From the IMG/VR virus record IMGVR_UViG_3300045941_000435, positions 1 to 21,222 of that record: a stretch of DNA of 21,222 nt; one strand, 5' to 3'. This stretch comes from a virus. Of the stretch, positions 4,072 through 21,222 are shown in pieces. Within the stretch, counting starts at the first letter, position 1. Every line of letters begins with the position of its first letter. Made by a program: the position numbers and the translations under genes. The notes below the pieces were generated by a model that did no database searches, was not told where the DNA came from, and was given only the letters and a program-made list of their open reading frames with translations.

Positions 4072-4638
4072 GTGGACGGGCTTACGCCATTGCAAGAACG
4101 CTTCGTGGCGGAATATGTGAAAGACCTTAATGCCAGCCAAGCCTATCAGCGTGCCGGGTATAAGGCCCGTGGAAATATTGCTGATGTCAATGCTTCGCGA
4201 CTGCTCAGGAATGCTAAGGTTGCTGACGCAGTGCGTCAACGCACTGCGTCACAGCTCAAAAAGATTGATATTACAGCGGATCGTGTCCTCGAAGAATCGG
4301 CGCGTCTCGCGTTCCTCGACGTGCGGCAACTCTACGAGGATGATGGCTCGCTCAAGCCTGTCTCACAATGGCCTGACCACATCGCTGCGGCGGTGGCAGG
4401 GATTGAGACCGTGCAGCAATATGAGTATGTCGATGGTGTGAAAGTCCCTACCGGCACGGTGAAGAAGGTGAAGCTCTGGGATAAGCCAGGGCAATTGGCG
4501 CTACTGGCCAAGCATCTCAAGCTCTTACAGGAAGATGTCCCCCAAACCGTGGTGAACATTCAGATTAACGTGCGCACGTCCTTAGCAGAAGCGTTACAGC
4601 ATGCCTACGGCAACGACCAAACCTCCGAAGCCCGCTAG
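4072..4638 (+). CDS. terS: Terminase small subunit
   Basis: This subunit recognises phage DNA and hands it to the large terminase for packaging. The N-terminus LTPLQERFVAEYVKDLNASQ followed by AYQRAGYKARGNIADVNASR matches the Terminase_2 (XtmA-like) helix-turn-helix region, residues about 4-50. The middle is helical (oligomerisation), and a C-terminal tail precedes the large subunit. It starts with GTG at 4072. The length of 188 aa is normal for the family. Its last 38 bases overlap the start of terL, a common arrangement that keeps the two subunits co-translated. Confidence 0.85.
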   Translation: MDGLTPLQERFVAEYVKDLNASQAYQRAGYKARGNIADVNASRLLRNAKVADAVRQRTASQLKKIDITADRVLEESARLAFLDVRQLYEDDGSLKPVSQWPDHIAAAVAGIETVQQYEYVDGVKVPTGTVKKVKLWDKPGQLALLAKHLKLLQEDVPQTVVNIQINVRTSLAEALQHAYGNDQTSEAR

Positions 4639-7114
4639 TCTGCCTCCTGCGGACCAGGCGCTCCTCGATGACTTGATCCAGCTGGTGGACAAGCCCTTAG
4701 CCTATGTCCACTGGGCCTTCCCGTGGGGCGAAGGAGAACTGGCGGGGGAGTCAGGGCCTGATACGTGGCAACGCGACGTGCTCCTGGACCTGGAGCAGCA
4801 GCTCAGAGTCACGGAGAGTAGCGTGCGGCTCGCGGTCTCGTCGGGCAATGGTATTGGCAAAGGGGCGCTGACGGCCTGGGTGGTGCAATGGTTCCTCGCC
4901 ACCAGACCCCAGTGTAAAGGGATTGTCACGGCCAACACGGCGGACCAGCTCTCTACCAAGACATGGGCCGAGGTGGCGAAATGGGTCAAGCTGTCGCGCG
5001 TCGGGCACTGGATGCACTGGCAGGCCACGAAGCTCTCCAGCATCTTTGCGCCAGAGACGTGGTTTATCAGTGCGCTGCCGTGGTCCAAAGACCGGCCGGA
5101 AGCGATGGCGGGGCTGCATGCGCCGTACGTCCTGGTCATTCTGGATGAGGCGAGCGCCATTCCTGACACGATCTGGGACACCTTAGAGGGCGCCATGACG
5201 ACGCATCGGGCCGTCTGGCTGGCGTTTGGTAACCCGACGCGCAATAGTGGCCGCTTTAAGGACGTCTTTCCGGGCGGGCTCTATGCGCATGAGTGGCGCA
5301 CCCGGCGGATTGATAGCCGTACCGCGAAGAAAGCGAACCGGGCACAGCATGAGCAGTGGATTGCTACTCGTGGCCTGGACTCGGACTTCGTCAAGATCCA
5401 CGTCTTAGGCGAGCATCCGCGTCAGTCCGAAGAGCAATTTATTGGCCAGGACATTATTGACGCAGCGCGTCAAAGAGACCAGGCGCCATTTCTGCATATG
5501 CCGATGATCCTCGGGGCGGATGTCGCGACCACGAACCGCAGCGTCCTGCTCGTGCGCCAGGGGGCCAAGATTCTCTGGCGGGGCGAGTACTGGGGGAAGA
5601 CACCGGGCGAGTGTGCGGCGCTGATCACCTCGACGATGGACCACTATGAGCCGGATGCCACGTTTGTGGATGCGGCGGGCCTCGGGGCGGGCATCTATGA
5701 CATGATCCGCCATACGAACCATTACGTCATTGCAGCCAATGGCGCCCATGCCGTGCCGGAGACTTTAAGTCTCCCCAACATGCCGAGCGACAAGGACATT
5801 TATTATAATATGCGCGCGTGTATGTGGGGGCGCATGAAAGACTGGCTGCGGGACGTGGGCACGTTGCCCCTGGAGTACACCGATCTCTCAAGAGAACTTC
5901 AGGAACCTCAATGGACGTATGCTGGAGCTAACAAAATCTTGTTAGAATCCAAGGAAGATATGCGTAGTAGGGGTGTCTCATCCCCAGACTGCTTCATTGC
6001 TGGAACGCTTGTTGATACCCCTGGCGGGCTGTGTCCTATCGAGAGCCTTCAGGTAGGAGATATGGTTGATACACCCATGGGACCGCGTGCTATTCTGCGG
6101 GTGTGGGTGACAGCAACAACCAGTCTCACTACAGCACATTTTTCCAACGGATCTTTCTTGACCGGAAAAGGTGCACATCACGTATTTACGTGGGATTGTG
6201 GATGGAAACGCCTTGATGCATTGTTATTAGTTAATAGAATAGAGACTAATAACACATGGAGGCGAATGTTATGGAAATTCCTCGCAAGATCATATACGCC
6301 GGTGAAACCTTTTGGCTTCAAACATCAGGTCGATACTATCAGTCAGGGCGACATAATGCGCCGGAGAGACTTTTACATCGGCGCATCTACACAGACCATT
6401 ATGGGCCTATTCCTGCGGGGTATGTGGTCCATCATGACAACGAGAATTGGCAAGACAACACACCGAGCAATCTTATCCTTAAACTGGATGAAGTCCATGG
6501 GCGTGAGCATATGCTCGAACGTATGGCGGACCCTGACTACCGGGCGAGAGCCTTGGAGGGGTTGGGCAAGGCCCAGCATGCCGCACGTGCCTGGCATAGT
6601 ACGCCAGAAGGGCTGGCATGGCATAGCGAGCATGGCAAAGCCTGCTGGGATGGTCGGGAGTCTGTGGCAGCAGTGTGTACGGTCTGCGGAACGGGCTTTG
6701 ACACCTACTTCCCTTCCCGTGCTAGGTTCTGCTCTAGGTCATGCATGCAGCGTGAAGGCTACCAGCGTGCCAAGACGAGTCATGGCATCTGTGAAATCTG
6801 CGGTGTGTCTTTTGTGGTCAATAAGTACCGGCGTCAGGCCTGTTGTTCCCGTAAATGTGGAAGTATCCTCCGGTGGCATGGCGGTTCCGGTCTACAATCT
6901 GACACTGGACGGTGACAACGTCTACTATGCCAACGGGGTGCTTGTGGCAAATTGTGCGGACAGCCTGTCACTCACCTTCTATGCCACCGTGCGTCCCAAG
7001 CGCGGCGTGGGCCTCAATGGGCATCAGCAGCAGTATGCGACACCAGCCGCCAGCCCGTTTGCGCCACGGGGCGGACCCCGGCAGCAGTTCGCGGGGGGTG
7101 GGTCGCGGCGATGA
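4601..7114 (+). CDS. terL: Terminase large subunit precursor with intein (837 aa; 516 aa after splicing)
   Basis: The packaging motor ATPase and nuclease. The Walker A-like loop SGNGIGKG is at residues 81-88, and Walker B with the catalytic Glu, VLVILDEA, at 177-184. The RNase H-like nuclease carries Asp307 in GADVAT, Asp357 in FVDAAG and the last acidic motif SPD/CADSLSLTF. An intein begins at Cys464, right after SPD, and ends at Asn784. The spliced protein would read SPDCADSLSLTF, the conserved form of this motif, and be of normal length (516 aa). The precursor is inactive until spliced because the catalytic motif is split. Bases 5880-5989, just before the intein, are more AT-rich than the rest of the gene. 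The last residues are Gly/Arg/Gln rich. Confidence 0.9.
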   Translation: MPTATTKPPKPASLPPADQALLDDLIQLVDKPLAYVHWAFPWGEGELAGESGPDTWQRDVLLDLEQQLRVTESSVRLAVSSGNGIGKGALTAWVVQWFLATRPQCKGIVTANTADQLSTKTWAEVAKWVKLSRVGHWMHWQATKLSSIFAPETWFISALPWSKDRPEAMAGLHAPYVLVILDEASAIPDTIWDTLEGAMTTHRAVWLAFGNPTRNSGRFKDVFPGGLYAHEWRTRRIDSRTAKKANRAQHEQWIATRGLDSDFVKIHVLGEHPRQSEEQFIGQDIIDAARQRDQAPFLHMPMILGADVATTNRSVLLVRQGAKILWRGEYWGKTPGECAALITSTMDHYEPDATFVDAAGLGAGIYDMIRHTNHYVIAANGAHAVPETLSLPNMPSDKDIYYNMRACMWGRMKDWLRDVGTLPLEYTDLSRELQEPQWTYAGANKILLESKEDMRSRGVSSPDCFIAGTLVDTPGGLCPIESLQVGDMVDTPMGPRAILRVWVTATTSLTTAHFSNGSFLTGKGAHHVFTWDCGWKRLDALLLVNRIETNNTWRRMLWKFLARSYTPVKPFGFKHQVDTISQGDIMRRRDFYIGASTQTIMGLFLRGMWSIMTTRIGKTTHRAILSLNWMKSMGVSICSNVWRTLTTGREPWRGWARPSMPHVPGIVRQKGWHGIASMAKPAGMVGSLWQQCVRSAERALTPTSLPVLGSALGHACSVKATSVPRRVMASVKSAVCLLWSISTGVRPVVPVNVEVSSGGMAVPVYNLTLDGDNVYYANGVLVANCADSLSLTFYATVRPKRGVGLNGHQQQYATPAASPFAPRGGPRQQFAGGGSRR
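6213..6240 (+). promoter_or_regulatory. Candidate promoter for the HNH gene inside the intein
   Basis: TTGATG (6213-6218), a 16-base spacer and TAGAAT (6235-6240) in the AT-rich N-terminal intein coding region, about 31 bases before the HNH start. The following bases TAATAACACATG (6247-6258) repeat exactly 12 bases of the array operator region. This is a prediction from consensus similarity only. Confidence 0.3.
6271..6915 (+). CDS. HNH homing endonuclease nested out of frame in the terL intein (214 aa)
   Basis: A probable DNA-cutting enzyme that would spread the intein. It is encoded in a different frame from terL (terL frame 2, this gene frame 1). GGAGG (6258-6262) lies 8 bases before the ATG at 6271. 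An in-frame ATG at 6256 has no such site, so 6271 is preferred. Residues 37-80 show the HNH core: HRRIYTDHYGPIPAG, then VVHHDNENWQDN with His54 and His55, Asn67 and His76. Two zinc-finger pairs follow: C136/C139 with C154/C158, and C174/C177 with C192/C196. The C-terminal 15 codons overlap the intein's final splicing block. Both frames appear to be used, because the terL frame remains open over the whole gene. Confidence 0.85.
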   Translation: MEIPRKIIYAGETFWLQTSGRYYQSGRHNAPERLLHRRIYTDHYGPIPAGYVVHHDNENWQDNTPSNLILKLDEVHGREHMLERMADPDYRARALEGLGKAQHAARAWHSTPEGLAWHSEHGKACWDGRESVAAVCTVCGTGFDTYFPSRARFCSRSCMQREGYQRAKTSHGICEICGVSFVVNKYRRQACCSRKCGSILRWHGGSGLQSDTGR

Positions 7115-12262: not shown

Positions 12263-12587
12263 GGTGAGTCCAGACGACCGCGTGCTCTTTGAGGCGGCCT
12301 GTGCGCTCTATGACCAGCGCGAGGCGCTCGCCGCGAAAGTGTACTGGGCGCTGATCGCGGAGCCCGACGTGGTGGCGGTGCGTGTAGCGCCTGCGGACAT
12401 CAGCCCGCTCCAGGCGCATGCGATGGAGGTGCTGGTGTGGCTCGCGCCAGCCGGGGATGTGTGGTTGCTCCGGTTAGAGTCGGTGGAAGCAGCACCGCCT
12501 ATGGCTATTCTTGATGCGTACCATCGGGCACGGTGGAAGAGGCAGAGGCTGGAAGCGAGCAAGAAAGTGAGCCTCGGATGTCCGTGA
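12249..12587 (+). CDS. Hypothetical protein (112 aa)
   Basis: The ATG at 12249 (MTSAEVSPDDRVLFEAACAL) is inside the end of the previous gene; an upstream in-frame start at 12108 would be wholly inside that gene, so it was rejected. Residues 1-30 are helical. The middle VVAVRVAPADISPLQAHAME and VLVWLAPAGDVWLLRLESVE are alternating beta strands, and a helix YHRARWKRQRLEA follows. The strand VRVAP...VWLLRLESV pattern suggests a small barrel or ferredoxin-like fold. Unknown function. Confidence 0.45.
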   Translation: MTSAEVSPDDRVLFEAACALYDQREALAAKVYWALIAEPDVVAVRVAPADISPLQAHAMEVLVWLAPAGDVWLLRLESVEAAPPMAILDAYHRARWKRQRLEASKKVSLGCP

Positions 12588-12808
12588 GTCATGACACCCT
12601 GACCCAACTCGAAGCCTGCGGCGTCACGGAGACGCATCTGAAGGAGCTGCTACGCTTTCTCCGGTGCCAGCGCAACGGCTCGTGGTCCTGGCACGGGCGC
12701 AATGGGCAGTTGGAGCAGTGTGAGCTACGGCTGGTGTATCCCGCGAAGCGGGCGGTGGTAGAGGAAGTGGGGATGCATATGTGGAAGGACCACGAGACCA
12801 AACGCTAG
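12578..12808 (+). CDS. Small hypothetical protein ending in the terminator (76 aa)
   Basis: The ATG at 12578 overlaps the previous stop by 10 bases and gives MSVSHDTLTQLEACGVTETH. A longer in-frame start at 12533 lies inside the preceding gene and has no better ribosome site. The protein has an HTH-like or helical first half (LKELLRFLRCQRNGS), then WSWHGRNGQLEQCELRLVYP and an acidic-basic tail. Its last codons are part of the terminator hairpin, and the stop TAG is in the loop-stem junction. Confidence 0.5.
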   Translation: MSVSHDTLTQLEACGVTETHLKELLRFLRCQRNGSWSWHGRNGQLEQCELRLVYPAKRAVVEEVGMHMWKDHETKR

Positions 12809-12824
12809 GTCTCGTGGTCCTGTT
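12787..12824 (+). terminator. Strong hairpin terminator at the end of the portal operon
   Basis: GGACCACGAGACC (12787-12799), eight bases, GGTCTCGTGGTCC (12808-12820), then TGTTTG. The 13-base stem is perfect and the loop contains the stop codon. The T-tract is weak. It separates the + operon from the repeat array beyond. Confidence 0.7.
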
Positions 12825-12861
12825 TGCCTGCGGCGCCGTGTGCTGTCCAGTCACGCTCTGC

Positions 12862-13316
12862 CACCCCCTGCCGTGACGAGTCTTGCCGCGCCTGCGCTGC
12901 CATGTCGGGAGCGGCCACGCCTGGCCGCGTCGAGCCTCGCCTGCCAAGCCCAGTCCGGCCTGGCCGCGTCAAGAGGCGCCATGTCTCGTCTCGCCTGCTA
13001 TGTCCCGCCTTGTCACGTCGTGCCCAGCCATCCCCGCCATGCCTGCGAAGCCTTGCCAGGTCAAGTCGCGCCAGGTTCTGTCGCGCCGCGCCATGCCTGC
13101 GGTGCCTCGTCGCGCCTTCCTCAGCCTCGTCATGTCGCGCCTAGCCTGCCATGTCCCGTCGGGCCTAGTCGCGTCTCGCCTTGCGTCGCCTGCCGTGCTA
13201 TGGAACGCGGTGCGATGCGAAGCCTGGCGATGCCTGCGAAGCCGCGTCGTGCCGTGTCCGGCCAGGTCGTGCCTAGTCAAGCCATGCTTGCGCAGCCCGG
13301 TCTGGTCCTGCCACGC
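12862..13316. repeat. Degenerate pentanucleotide repeat array (YCNNG)
   Basis: No gene is supported in 12821-13329. Instead the sequence is built of 5-base units YCNNG on +, which read CNNGR on the minus strand. Uninterrupted runs include 13242-13286 (nine units such as CCGCG TCGTG CCGTG), 13149-13183 (seven units), 12944-12973 (six units) and 13051-13095 (nine units with one deviation). Phase slips of one base separate runs. Because A is rare, all frames stay open and give Arg/His/Ala/Gly-rich nonsense proteins. It sits in the convergent gap at the 3' end of the minus-strand operon 13330-14612. Confidence 0.75.
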
Positions 13317-13329
13317 CTTACCTACACTA

Positions 13330-13935
13330 TCAGCCCCCATTCTTGTTGCGTTTGCCTTGGGCTGCTTCCCATAGGGGGGCAAACTCGTTGAGGACGTCAA
13401 GCGGGAGGTCACTCAAGGTCTCTTTCTGATGGACGGTCAGCAGGTCAATCCCTTTTGCTAAGACGTCAATGTGTCGGGTGAGCCCGTCCCGTTGGGCGCC
13501 AAGGCGAGTCATATGAAACAGGAGGTCGTTTTTTGTAAAGTAGAGCAACGCTTTTACTTCATGATTCGCGACTTCGAGGTGCGTGTCTTGCAAAATTTGG
13601 GGATAGACGATGGTTGGGCCAGTCCAGGGCATTGTCTGGACGGGGATCGTGATGGTGCGGTGTTCCTGGGCTCCGCGTGTGATGGGGACGGTGCCGATGA
13701 GCACACCCGTAGTGGCTTCGCGGGGCTGGGGGCTGGACAAGGCCGCACTGACGCGGGCGGCGAGCGCATCTTGGGCTAAATCTTCGATCAGACTCTTGGA
13801 AATACGGGGGCGTAAGGTTTCCCATCGCGTACGGATAGTTTCGCGTGGTAGTTGTTTGTGCTGCTTAATGTCGTCACAAATGGCGGCGACAATGGCTTGT
13901 TTTGTTTCAAACAGTGCAAGGGTGTCCTGACTCAT
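13330..13935 (-). CDS. Hypothetical protein, second gene of minus-strand operon (201 aa)
   Basis: It begins MSQDTLALFETKQAIVAAIC and overlaps the stop of the upstream gene by 4 bases, so it is co-translated with it. Residues 1-70 are helical (RWETLRPRISKSLIEDLAQD). Residues about 75-110 are beta-like with RTITIPVQTMPW, and residues about 120-190 are helical (VKALLYFTKNDLLFHMTRLG, RDGLTRHIDVLAKGIDLLTV). No family recognised. Two helical ends around a beta core, and the tight pairing with the RAMP-like protein, suggest the two act together. The 3' end runs into the pentanucleotide array. Confidence 0.6.
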   Translation of the reverse strand: MSQDTLALFETKQAIVAAICDDIKQHKQLPRETIRTRWETLRPRISKSLIEDLAQDALAARVSAALSSPQPREATTGVLIGTVPITRGAQEHRTITIPVQTMPWTGPTIVYPQILQDTHLEVANHEVKALLYFTKNDLLFHMTRLGAQRDGLTRHIDVLAKGIDLLTVHQKETLSDLPLDVLNEFAPLWEAAQGKRNKNGG

Positions 13936-14612
13936 GGTTTCGTCGTATCCACATTAAAGAGTCCATACCCAATTCCATTACTGTCGCGAGAGTCGGGCCG
14001 TCCTTCGCCTATGCCCACCTGCCGTCCAACCCGCACCAGTAAATTGGAAATATCCTCATAACTAAATTGGTCCATATCAAAGCGCACGCGGAGCCAAACC
14101 TCCCACGTTTCCCAGAGGGGGCGATTACGGAGGTCAATCACACCGGTGGCATTTCGCACGGGGAGCAGGTGAGGGTGGGGGGCCCCATAAATGCGGACGA
14201 GCGGGGTCTTATCGACGACATCCAAACCATCGCTTTCAATAAAGATCGAGAGCTTGGCAATCGTCATTTTGAAGCCACACATGCGGCAGGCACTGATAAA
14301 CGCACTCCGAAACGCGCCACAGGGGATGCCGTAGGTGCCCTCATCCATGAAGTGAATCGCCTGGAGATAATCGGCCTCAAAATTTCGCGCTTCTCTGGTG
14401 CGTTTGGACCGTGATTGTTGTCCCGCTTCGTGCGTCGCTTGGATCTTGTGGATGGCTTTTTCGCTAAACCGGCATTGCATGTACGGACTGGTGCCAACCA
14501 GATGGTACGTCGCCGTGTGTTCGGCGAGTGGAGTAATTTTTACAGTGGCGGTGGCGACCACGAGTGGCATGCCATTGCCTGGGGAGGAGGGAAGAGTGGT
14601 TGTGCGAGCCAT
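13932..14612 (-). CDS. Conserved phage protein with RAMP-like features (226 aa)
   Basis: The start ATG at 14612 has AAGGAG just before it; the frame opens further to 14717, but that is the promoter region. Residues 95-104 (GIPCGAFRSA) resemble the IPGSSLKGALRSA motif of RAMP/Cas7 proteins. Residues 200-217 (GIGEGRPDSRDSNGIGYG) look like the glycine-rich loop near the end of RAMP proteins. Between them, KLSIFIESDG, TPLVRIYG, VRNATGVIDL and VWLRVRFDMD read as alternating strands. A Lys/Arg-rich helix (KIQATHEAGQQSRSKRTREA) could bind nucleic acid. The combination suggests an RNA- or DNA-binding ferredoxin-like protein, but sequence identity is only motif-level. Function not known. Confidence 0.6.
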   Translation of the reverse strand: MARTTTLPSSPGNGMPLVVATATVKITPLAEHTATYHLVGTSPYMQCRFSEKAIHKIQATHEAGQQSRSKRTREARNFEADYLQAIHFMDEGTYGIPCGAFRSAFISACRMCGFKMTIAKLSIFIESDGLDVVDKTPLVRIYGAPHPHLLPVRNATGVIDLRNRPLWETWEVWLRVRFDMDQFSYEDISNLLVRVGRQVGIGEGRPDSRDSNGIGYGLFNVDTTKP

Positions 14613-14757: not shown

Positions 14758-14794
14758 CTAGCTCTGGCTAGGAGCCCAGCGCCACTGACCATCA

Positions 14795-14837
14795 AGCGCC
14801 AGCCACTCGGATTCCCCGAGTGGCTGGCGCTTTTTTT
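14795..14837 (+). terminator. Strong intrinsic terminator on the plus strand
   Basis: AGCGCCAGCCACTCGG (14795-14810), five bases, CCGAGTGGCTGGCGCT (14816-14831), then a run of Ts to 14837. The 16-base stem is perfect. There is no + strand gene between 12808 and here, so what it stops is unclear. A second hairpin, CCTAGC/GCTAGG, lies at 14757-14772. Confidence 0.75.
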
Positions 14838-15068: not shown

Positions 15069-16163
15069 ATGGCTGAAGAAAGTGCTGCTGCGGTCCTTGA
15101 TGCCCCTGCTAGTCCCACCGCTGATAGTTCTCCGTCTGCTGACGTCGCAGCGCCTGTGGTGGTGGAGTCTCCGTCTGCGCCCCAGGTTGAGACTCCCCCT
15201 ACGCCTGTGCCTCAACGATCCATTGAGCCTGATCCCACGCCCACCCGTCAGCAGCGCCAGCCAGAGCCGGTGGTCCCTGAGACGCCGCCTGCACCCTTGG
15301 AAGACGCCCGTGATGCGAATGATACCCTCCTCAACTGGCGGGATCTGGCGGACCCGGAGTTTCGCAACCATCCGACGCTCCAGAAGTACAAGTCGGTGAA
15401 TGAAGCGCTCAAGGCGGTGGTGAATCAGGAAGAGTTGCTGGGCCGCTCCATCACGATTCCGAAGCCTGGGGCCAGTGATACCCAATGGCGCACGATCTTC
15501 GAGAAGCTCGGCTGTCCCAAGACGGCGAGTGACTACGCCATTACGGACCCGGATATGGGGAAGGATGCAGACGGCAACGCCAAAGGTCTGGCCCCCAACT
15601 TCCTGGTGTCGCTGCTCGATGTCGCGCACACCGCGGGCCTGACCAATAAGCAAGCCCAGGAGTTTGTGAACTTTGCGGCCCGCACGGTGGTGCAGTCGGA
15701 GAATATCCAGGCGGGTGAGATGGCGATGCAGAAGGCGCAGGCCGAGCGGCAGTTGTTTGAGGCGTTCGCGGGTGATGCGGCGACGATGATTCAAAAGGCG
15801 ACCATGGCTATTAGCCGACTCGGTGAGGGCAGATACGGCGGTGGTAGCTATAGTCAAAGAGCTGCTGAGAAACTTAGGTCTAGCTCACTTGGTAATGATG
15901 TTGATGTTATTGCTGCATTTAGTAACTTATGGGACAACATGAGCGAGGGCCAATTTATTGAAGGTCCTGCTGGAAGTCTTTCTTCTAAAGATCAGATTCA
16001 GGCTGATCTTGTTGCTTCAGACAGTATCATGAACGATGACACAAAGCCAATAGCTGAACGCAATCAAGCCGCAGCCAGATCTTTCCAGCTACGGCATGAT
16101 TTGGTCGCGCTCGAAGAGGCAGCCGAGCGACGCGCGACGGGGTTTGGTGGACGGAGGGCCTAA
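15069..16163 (+). CDS. Capsid scaffold (assembly) protein (364 aa)
   Basis: Directs head assembly and is removed before DNA packaging in T7-like phages. Residues 1-85 are Pro/Ala/Glu-rich and likely disordered. From about 100 come NHPTLQKYKSVNEALKAVVN and a tract with IPKPGASDTQWRTIFEKLGC, then PKTASDYAI, which fit the podovirus scaffold pattern. The C-terminal third is helical and basic at the end (EEAAERRATGFGGRRA), as scaffold tails that bind the capsid protein usually are. The position between portal and major capsid agrees. Codon use changes to AT-rich from about 15829 to 16060. It overlaps the next ATG by one base (TAATG). Confidence 0.75.
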   Translation: MAEESAAAVLDAPASPTADSSPSADVAAPVVVESPSAPQVETPPTPVPQRSIEPDPTPTRQQRQPEPVVPETPPAPLEDARDANDTLLNWRDLADPEFRNHPTLQKYKSVNEALKAVVNQEELLGRSITIPKPGASDTQWRTIFEKLGCPKTASDYAITDPDMGKDADGNAKGLAPNFLVSLLDVAHTAGLTNKQAQEFVNFAARTVVQSENIQAGEMAMQKAQAERQLFEAFAGDAATMIQKATMAISRLGEGRYGGGSYSQRAAEKLRSSSLGNDVDVIAAFSNLWDNMSEGQFIEGPAGSLSSKDQIQADLVASDSIMNDDTKPIAERNQAAARSFQLRHDLVALEEAAERRATGFGGRRA

Positions 16164-18432: not shown

Positions 18433-18939
18433 ATGGCAGAGACCTATAGTCTAGAATATACCAATTTACTGATTACAAAGCCTCCTGTGAAAACTGTGAG
18501 GCAGTCGGTTGCCATGAAGGTGCAGCCGTTTAGTTATACACAAGTGTTAGCTGGAACGGCTGAGGATACGTGTATTATCGCGCAGCTTCCGCCGTTTAGT
18601 CAGCTCTATCTGCCAAGTTGTGTGTTCTATCACGCTGGGTTTACTAGTGGTATGACGCTCTCAGTAGGCTGGAAGGCCTATGTGGACAAGAACGGAGTGA
18701 CCCAAGCACTCAGCGCAACAGGGTTGTTTAATGCAGCGGACATCAGTAACGGCACCGGCATGTTGCATGGCGGGATGAACTCAGTTGCCAGTCCAGATGA
18801 CTTTAATCCTGTCTCTACTAGTATCATGAAGGATTTCGAAAATTCTGGGCCGGTGGATATTTACGTGACGTTTGGTGCGCAAGTCCCAGGAGCTGCTGCT
18901 GTACTCCTGGGATATCTTGTCTATGGCAACATAGGCTAG
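18433..18939 (+). CDS. Putative capsid decoration or minor virion protein (168 aa)
   Basis: It has AAAGGAGG before the ATG, 14 bases after the capsid stop. It is beta-rich: MKVQPFSYTQVLAGTAEDTC, LPSCVFYHAGFTSGMTLSVG and WKAYVDKNGVTQAL, with the tail VPGAAAVLLGYLVYGNIG. The composition (Ser, Thr, Gly, Tyr) and the place right behind the major capsid gene fit a decoration or head-surface protein of podoviruses. Codon use is AT-rich in the first third. It ends in CTAG, which also contains the stop of the facing HNH gene. Confidence 0.55.
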   Translation: MAETYSLEYTNLLITKPPVKTVRQSVAMKVQPFSYTQVLAGTAEDTCIIAQLPPFSQLYLPSCVFYHAGFTSGMTLSVGWKAYVDKNGVTQALSATGLFNAADISNGTGMLHGGMNSVASPDDFNPVSTSIMKDFENSGPVDIYVTFGAQVPGAAAVLLGYLVYGNIG

Positions 18940-19604
18940 AACAAACGTTGCTGCTGGGCAATCTTCCGATTGCCCTTTGAAGAGTTGCACCGGAGGTGGG
19001 CGAGTACGCAGTTCTTGTAACTATGCTCACCTCCTTCGGAGATAGGGATTACGTGATCTCTCGACGCATCTTCGCGAGTACAACGTTTCAAACACAACTG
19101 ACAGATGCCCTTGTCACGCTTATAGAGCACGTCAAGGTCTACTGGTTCTCCGCTAAGCGCATGGCGTACCAGTATGCGGCGTGCATTATTGACGGCATAG
19201 ACATACGACCGCCGCTTGCTTACCCATCGCTGCCGCGATCTTTTGCAAGACTCAGGATGGGCTTTCTTCCATGCACGGTCTTTCTTGCGAGCCTCTTCAA
19301 GATTGGCTTGCCTACGCCTACGAGCTTGGGCATTCACATGGTCCCGATTGTTTGCCACATGCTTACGAGACCGCGCCAAAGCTTTACTGGGGTCTTTACG
19401 ATGTTTTGCCGCACTTCTCTCGCGTTCCTTGTCGATGTTCTTGGCATACGACTTTCGGCCCGATGCCAGATGCGCGTCAGCATTGTCCCTCTGATGCTGT
19501 GCCTTACAGGCTTTGCATGTGGTCTGATAACCACGCTTCGTACTGGCACGATGAAATTCAGTGGTTGGCTTGGATGCTTTGCAATGCGAACAGACGAGTT
19601 CCAC
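18936..19604 (-). CDS. Freestanding HNH endonuclease with zinc ribbon (222 aa)
   Basis: A DNA nuclease of the homing type. The GTG start at 19604 has AGGAGG 5 bases upstream. The N-terminal zinc ribbon uses C5/C8 and C30/C33 (CSHC, CKAC). Residues 40-150 are a very basic helical DNA-binding region (RARRRRQANLEEARKKDRAW). The HNH core is in residues 167-210: CQLCLKRC, then DHVIPISEGG with the catalytic His, KNCVLAHLRCN and the closing SSKGNRK. It is inserted against the head-tail operon between the decoration protein and the Acb2-like gene. Such genes usually spread by cutting intein- or gene-free relatives. Confidence 0.85.
   Translation of the reverse strand: MELVCSHCKASKPTTEFHRASTKRGYQTTCKACKAQHQRDNADAHLASGRKSYAKNIDKERERSAAKHRKDPSKALARSRKHVANNRDHVNAQARRRRQANLEEARKKDRAWKKAHPESCKRSRQRWVSKRRSYVYAVNNARRILVRHALSGEPVDLDVLYKRDKGICQLCLKRCTREDASRDHVIPISEGGEHSYKNCVLAHLRCNSSKGNRKIAQQQRLF

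Positions 19605-21049: not shown

Positions 21050-21222
<173 letters not shown>

What the first reader, a model, noticed from the sequence alone, without database searches (positions are those of the whole stretch)
12862..13316. Roughly 450-base array of degenerate pentanucleotide units
The units follow YCNNG (minus strand CNNGR) for long uninterrupted runs, while the two middle bases vary freely. A fixed C..G with free middle bases is not explained by coding (the period is not a multiple of 3) or by simple slippage of one unit. It could be a structured RNA, a protein-binding track, or a site for DNA bending at half-turn spacing.
Basis: seen in the sequence. Interest (0 to 1): 0.78.

Follow-up and report, generated by a model that had tools for sequence, protein, structure and literature searches.

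The report
Phage VIPR guide-RNA array beside Vipr
The stretch of five-letter repeats in this phage is almost certainly a string of about ten guide-RNA genes of VIPR, an RNA-guided system described in 2026 that phages use to bind and silence the DNA of rival phages; the matching Vipr protein is encoded right next to it.

Summary
Window 12827-13317 holds 90 five-base units, CNNGY on the + strand (GRC-NN on the - strand), with lag-5 identity 0.49 against about 0.25 at other lags. The two N are nearly random. The phase shifts by one base at 4-base units, mostly CTGC (GGCAGG in the RNA), about every 10 units.

Similar arrays are common in viral contigs. A co-directional gene family, phrog_4652, lies beside them in 84/120 and 88/102 array loci, against 1/115 control loci. 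Here it is 13932-14612(-). Its profile matches one solved protein above chance, 'SUSP1 Vipr protein' (36pp, E=2.5e-11), and its predicted fold is a Cas7-type RAMP.

The VIPR preprint (PMC13142463, April 2026) describes this anatomy: a phage RAMP plus guide RNAs of 9-16 tandem YNNGG units whose NN pairs specify dsDNA with one base skipped. So the array is a VIPR vrRNA array: known in kind, unannotated here.

Particular here: a scaffold that is GAC in a third of units (GGY in the preprint), tail-less blocks joined by GGCAGG, and an accessory gene of another family. Guide composition fits codon positions 1-2, but no natural target was found. Transcription and silencing are inferred.

The parts
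12827..13317 (-). VIPR-type vrRNA array: about ten guides of GRC-NN units (CNNGY on the + strand)
   Evidence: HMM decoding, lag statistics; relatives beside Vipr
13932..14612 (-). vipr homologue (phrog_4652), RAMP protein of 226 aa; start ATG with AGGAG upstream
13330..13935 (-). accessory gene (201 aa), overlaps the vipr stop by 4 bases, unrelated to phrog_15946; homologues sit between vipr and array in L483, L485 and L486
13238..13287 (-). guide block, 10 units: AT-TT-TA-AC-CT-CG-AC-AC-GC-TT (RNA order)
13194..13233 (-). guide block, 8 units: AT-CA-TT-AT-AC-GT-AT-AC
13150..13189 (-). guide block, 8 units: GA-AA-GA-GC-TA-CC-GG-AT
13101..13145 (-). guide block, 9 units: TA-GC-AT-GA-TG-AA-GC-GA-AC
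13047..13096 (-). guide block, 10 units: AT-GC-GC-AG-CT-GC-TT-CT-AA-TT
12999..13028 (-). guide block, 6 units (broken): TG-AC-GT-AA-GG-AT
12945..12994 (-). guide block, 10 units: GA-GA-AT-GC-TT-GC-CA-CG-TG-TT
12896..12940 (-). guide block, 9 units: GA-TC-GC-CA-GT-CG-CC-AT-AG
12827..12891 (-). guide block, 13 units as decoded: GC-AA-TC-AC-AG-GT-AG-GT-TG-AG-AC-GC-AG
12892..12895 (-). junction unit CTGC on + strand (GGCAGG in the RNA); others at 12941, 12995, 13043, 13097, 13146, 13190, 13234, and TTGC at 13288
12784..12822 (.). perfect 14-bp hairpin at the RNA 3' end of the array, shared with the convergent + strand gene 12533-12808; possible two-way terminator
   Evidence: fold; sequence

Best explanation
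The array is the guide-RNA array of a phage-encoded VIPR system. The operon is transcribed on the minus strand: vipr (13932-14612), an accessory gene (13330-13935), then the array (13317 to 12827), ending at a hairpin. The array RNA is a series of about ten guides, mostly of 8-13 GRC-NN units, joined by the 4-base unit that reads GGCAGG. Copies of the RAMP protein Vipr coat each guide, presumably one per pentanucleotide. The constant GRC triplets are the protein-bound scaffold, and the NN pairs, exposed by the RAMP, base-pair with double-stranded DNA in the pattern NNx (two bases read, one skipped). Binding blocks transcription of genes of competing phages or prophages. Shown here: the array, its block structure, its orientation, its tight linkage to a Vipr homologue, the RAMP fold, and guide composition like codon positions 1-2. 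Taken from the VIPR preprint for related systems and only inferred here: transcription, processing, RNP formation, the 1-nt skip code and silencing.
For: (1) Array statistics and anatomy. (2) The phrog_4652 gene is present in 84/120 and 88/102 array-scan loci but 1/115 control loci; 220 of 233 array-gene pairs are co-directional. (3) The profile of that family hits PDB 36pp 'SUSP1 Vipr protein' at 2.5e-11, next best 0.16. (4) The AlphaFold2 model (pLDDT 91.1, pTM 0.83) matches Cmr4, Csm3 and type VII Cas7 chains, best E 3.4e-5. (5) The preprint PMC13142463 describes vrRNAs of 9-16 YNNGG repeats with conserved GGY and hypervariable NN, a minimal vipr+vap locus and mostly phage or prophage carriage; here 85 arrays have blocks with mode 10 units. 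(6) Isolates: 31 phage records hold the protein, and all 12 checked (9 F1 mycobacteriophages, Gordonia phages ODay and Pipp, cyanophage Cy-LDV1) carry the array beside it, whereas F1 phage Firehouse51 has neither. (7) Alleles in F1 phages: flanks nearly identical while guides are swapped whole or change by single 5-nt units. (8) Guide NN composition is closest to codon positions 1-2 (KL 0.12-0.19) against 0.19-0.27 for positions 2-3 and over 0.43 for 3-1, as the wobble-skip rule predicts.
Against: No natural target was found: local 1-nt-skip matches do not clearly exceed shuffled guides, and exact searches for three window guides and one F1 guide gave nothing convincing (one hit, L479, was not examined). 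The scaffold is GGC 43 and GAC 28 of 88 triplets, not GGY. There is no constant structured 3' tail after each guide as in the SUSP1 clade. The usual accessory family phrog_15946 is absent from the window. The window protein alone matches SUSP1 Vipr only weakly (E 0.032); the family profile is needed. No expression data exist for this virus.
Confidence: 0.93

Rival explanations
1. A target array for another ring- or filament-forming RNA-binding protein, of the TRAP kind (triplets with 2-nt spacers in blocks of about 11), used for regulation and not for guiding.
For: Triplet plus 2-nt spacer layout and block size of about 10-11; arrays lie after stop codons.
Against: The linked protein is a RAMP of the Vipr family, not TRAP. 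NN composition follows codon positions 1-2 and whole blocks turn over, which a plain binding track does not predict.
Confidence: 0.04
2. A degenerate minisatellite kept by replication slippage, without function.
For: Single 5-nt unit duplications or losses between F1 alleles.
Against: NN positions are no more alike between neighbouring units than chance. C, G and Y stay fixed across very divergent phages. Linkage to one gene family is near-absolute in the array scans and almost absent in controls.
Confidence: 0.01
3. A DNA-level element: protein filament track or bending site at half-turn spacing.
For: The 5-bp period is about half a helical turn.
Against: Strong orientation bias to transcription (67 of 81 neighbours on the 3' side of the CNNGY strand; 220 of 233 pairs), start just after stop codons, and frequent -1 slips that break helical phase.
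Confidence: 0.01
4. Coding repeat (pentapeptide-like protein).
For: Stop-free frames exist across the array.
Against: The lack of stops follows from the motif itself. Block lengths such as 49, 54 and 59 nt shift the frame, and the array lies outside the conserved genes in relatives.
Confidence: 0.005

Closest known systems
VIPR (Viral Interference Programmable Repeat), SUSP1 and P. fulva type II systems, PMC13142463
   Same: Phage-encoded RAMP gene (Vipr); adjacent intergenic tandem 5-nt repeats with a conserved triplet and free NN; about 9-16 repeats per guide; small locus with one accessory gene; composition consistent with wobble skip.
   Different: Scaffold GRC (a third GAC) in place of GGY; guides concatenated through GGCAGG with no constant tail between them; accessory protein unrelated to the common phrog_15946 family. 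The preprint mentions 'a related consensus' and 'staggered arrays' in supplements that could not be read, so these may already be covered.
Class 1 CRISPR-Cas Cas7 (Csm3, Cmr4, type VII Cas7)
   Same: RAMP fold; protein expected to coat a guide RNA at regular spacing.
   Different: No CRISPR repeats and a single RAMP; no cas genes among those scanned; guide information lies in the NN pairs of a 5-nt repeat, not in a contiguous spacer.
TRAP binding sites ((G/U)AG-NN x 11; from general knowledge)
   Same: Triplet plus 2-nt spacer layout in blocks of about 11.
   Different: Different triplet, different linked protein, arrays of many blocks.

Membership tests
VIPR | Vipr protein: RAMP homologue with RRM-like core and glycine-rich loop | tested here: met
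   Profile hit to SUSP1 Vipr 2.5e-11; Foldseek to Cas7-type RAMPs; conserved C-terminal glycine-rich stretch ending in RP
VIPR | vrRNA of about 9-16 tandem 5-nt repeats: conserved triplet plus hypervariable NN | tested here: met
   90 units in blocks mostly of 8-13; mode 10 in relatives
VIPR | Scaffold triplet GGY | tested here: inconclusive
   Window GGC 43, GAC 28 of 88; all arrays GGC 77%, GAC 6%, GGU 6%. The preprint allows 'a related consensus', not readable here
VIPR | Invariable structured 3' tail on each vrRNA (a feature of the SUSP1 clade) | tested here: not met
   Blocks joined by GGCAGG only; no Rfam match, no excess structure. The preprint describes other array architectures, so this defines the clade and not VIPR as a whole
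VIPR | Accessory vap gene in the locus | tested here: inconclusive
   Gene 13330-13935 occupies the place and recurs in relatives, but its identity with vap1-6 could not be checked
VIPR | Phage-encoded locus | tested here: met
   Terminase, portal/head-tail connector, capsid and tail genes in the window
VIPR | Targets matched by NN with a 1-nt skip | tested here: inconclusive
   Codon-position 1-2 composition fits, but no target was found
VIPR | vrRNA expressed and bound by Vipr; represses its target | not testable with these tools
   needs sRNA-seq, pull-down and reporter assays
CRISPR-Cas (class 1) | CRISPR array with identical repeats of about 20-50 nt, and cas genes | tested here: not met
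   Only 5-nt degenerate units, no long identical direct repeat in the array; no cas gene among the window genes scanned
TRAP target | GAG/UAG triplets and a TRAP protein | tested here: not met
   Triplet is GRC; linked protein is a RAMP

The most novel reading that the evidence does not exclude
This clade is a distinct VIPR variant: a GRC scaffold drifting towards GAC (the GAC-rich label needs at least six changes on the Vipr tree), CRISPR-like concatenated guides delimited by GGCAGG with no tails, and a previously undescribed accessory protein co-transcribed with Vipr.
Probability: 0.3. Interest if true: 0.65.

Novelty: new member of a known kind. Interest (0 to 1): 0.55.

Why it matters
VIPR was described only in 2026 and is proposed as a relative of the ancestor of CRISPR. 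The arrays can be found from raw DNA alone by their 5-base frame, and they mark the system in many uncultivated viruses. The work points to sequenced phages that carry it (F1 mycobacteriophages such as Saal, Mattes, Zizzle and Donkeykong; Gordonia phages ODay and Pipp; cyanophage Cy-LDV1). In the F1 phages, natural guide alleles on nearly identical backgrounds make guide turnover directly testable. It also raises a clear question: whether GAC scaffolds work like GGC.

Tried and rejected
Coding or pentapeptide reading: rejected, because the frame shifts at each junction. Slippage minisatellite: neighbours are not alike at NN. TRAP-like and rut-site ideas: dropped once the linked gene proved to be a RAMP. 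BLAST of C-type arrays against phages and plasmids found nothing, probably because of the low-complexity filter. Bacterial genome scan: only one degenerate array among the first 120 hits. Target searches by the 1-nt skip rule in 4 Mb of held DNA, viral contigs, 399 Mycobacteriales genomes and the F1 phages, and a decoded peptide by tblastn, gave no convincing target. One window guide hit two independent sites (four contigs), but the tenth unit did not match at either; hit L479 of another guide was not examined. One guide in L448 matches a conserved site in six vipr genes at 16/18, including its own; suggestive only.

Full report
OBSERVATION. The lag-5 signal is far beyond Markov simulations of the same sequence (0.456 against 0.298 +/- 0.014; maximum of 5000, 0.348) and unique in the window. 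A hidden Markov decoding gives 12827-13317 with 90 full units. The C, G and Y are held and the two N are nearly random. The one-base phase slips are not noise: eight of ten are the 4-base unit CTGC, roughly every ten units.

RELATIVES. Scanning viral contigs for eight CNNGY units plus CNNG gave more than 120 stretches. After simple and coding repeats were removed, 41 degenerate arrays of at least 150 bp remained in 35 loci; the pattern read backwards gave none in 80 loci. A second scan built around the slip found 119 stretches. In 85 arrays, 463 of 576 short units are CTGC, and the number of full units between them peaks at 10, mostly 7-12. The bacterial genome scan gave one such array among its first 120 hits, so the feature is strongly viral.

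ORIENTATION. Read as RNA on the strand opposite to CNNGY, the array begins a median of 6 nt after a stop codon of a co-directional gene (77 arrays). Of 81 arrays with a called neighbour on that side, 67 have a co-directional one (a simple ORF caller was used). This argued against a coding reading and suggested a transcribed, non-coding RNA of the form (GRC NN)n.

THE LINKED GENES. Genes just 5' of the arrays fall mainly in two PHROG families of unknown function: phrog_15946 (29 of 71) and phrog_4652 (11 of 71). The second family is the window gene 13932-14612(-). An iterated profile search found it in 84 of 120 and 88 of 102 array loci, 1 of 115 control loci and 2 of 120 genome-scan loci; 220 of 233 array-gene pairs point the same way. 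The phrog_15946-type protein was found in 112 loci, 107 of them with phrog_4652.

IDENTITY. A profile of 72 members matches one solved protein above chance: PDB 36pp, 'SUSP1 Vipr protein', E 2.5e-11. The predicted structure is confident (pLDDT 91.1) and its best PDB matches are Cas7-type RAMPs of type III and type VII CRISPR complexes. The paper behind the name is a preprint of April 2026 (PMC13142463). It describes VIPR: a phage RAMP, Vipr, with vrRNAs of 9-16 YNNGG repeats. The NN pairs read double-stranded DNA with one base skipped between pairs, the skipped base usually being the codon wobble. Natural targets are competing phages and satellites, and the accessory genes are called vap.

MECHANISM HERE. 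By that model, the minus-strand operon makes Vipr, an accessory protein and a string of about ten guides ending at a 14-bp hairpin. First, the NN pairs of 933 guides resemble codon positions 1-2 better than 2-3 or 3-1. Second, in F1 mycobacteriophages and in the L069/L486 pair, whole guide blocks are replaced or retained while the scaffold and, in the F1 phages, the flanks stay. Several F1 variants also differ by single 5-nt units, which by the code would be single codons of the target; this last step is inference.

WHAT WAS NOT SHOWN. No target was found for the window guides or for the F1 guides tried. At the two sites hit by one guide the next unit failed to match, so they look like chance; one further hit (L479) was not examined. 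The window host is unknown and its rivals may not be sequenced. Transcription, processing and silencing are inferred.

HOW IT DIFFERS. (a) The scaffold triplet is GGC 43 and GAC 28 of 88 in the window. Across the arrays, GAC-rich scaffolds are scattered over the Vipr tree, needing six label changes. (b) Guides are concatenated with GGCAGG junctions and no constant tails; Rfam finds nothing in the seven sources scanned, hammerheads included. (c) The window accessory gene is not phrog_15946. It recurs between vipr and array in L483, L485 and L486, and beside the array in L484, where the vipr side lies at the contig end. L483, L484 and L485 carry the same array and are near-copies (L483 is the L069 contig), so this rests on the window and two distinct relatives. 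The preprint's supplements, which mention related consensus motifs and staggered arrays, could not be read, so these differences are offered as a possible variant and not claimed as new.

ISOLATES. In the phage collection the Vipr homologue is found in 31 records (25 Mycobacterium, 5 Gordonia, 1 cyanophage), annotated as hypothetical proteins. Nine F1 mycobacteriophages, Gordonia phages ODay and Pipp and cyanophage Cy-LDV1 were inspected, and all carry the array next to it. The preprint's main text does not mention mycobacterial, Gordonia or cyanobacterial phages.

VERDICT. Real feature, known kind: a VIPR vrRNA array, confidence 0.93. New member, with a modest chance of being a distinct variant.

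Noticed in passing
window 4601-7114 and 6256-6915: The large terminase ORF holds a Hint (intein) domain, and an HNH endonuclease ORF of 219 aa overlaps it in another frame: apparently an intein with a nested homing-endonuclease-like gene.
   Followed up: partly
window 18936-19604(-): Free-standing HNH endonuclease gene on the strand opposite to the structural genes, downstream of the capsid gene and before the tail gene.
   Followed up: no
window 21164-21222: Poly-C/CG-rich end of the contig, probably an assembly or sequencing artefact.
   Followed up: no
window 14794-14832: Strong terminator-like hairpin with T-run on the + strand, upstream of the structural gene block that starts near 15069.
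   Followed up: no
L448 7962-8006: A guide whose 1-nt-skip reading matches 16/18 at a conserved site in six vipr genes, including the one in its own locus; the preprint reports vrRNAs aimed at other VIPR systems.
   Followed up: partly
L063, L076, L092, L394, L403, L460: Arrays whose scaffold is mostly GAC instead of GGC.
   Followed up: partly
L127 4053-4211, L128 4028-4192, L366 1650-1814: Some F1 mycobacteriophage records annotate short 'hypothetical protein' genes inside the array (ByChance 39, DRBy19 51, Gorge 53); these are probably false genes.
   Followed up: partly
L286 359-568: A degenerate array in a Desulfobulbaceae MAG contig without a detected Vipr in the held stretch; possibly a prophage.
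   Followed up: no
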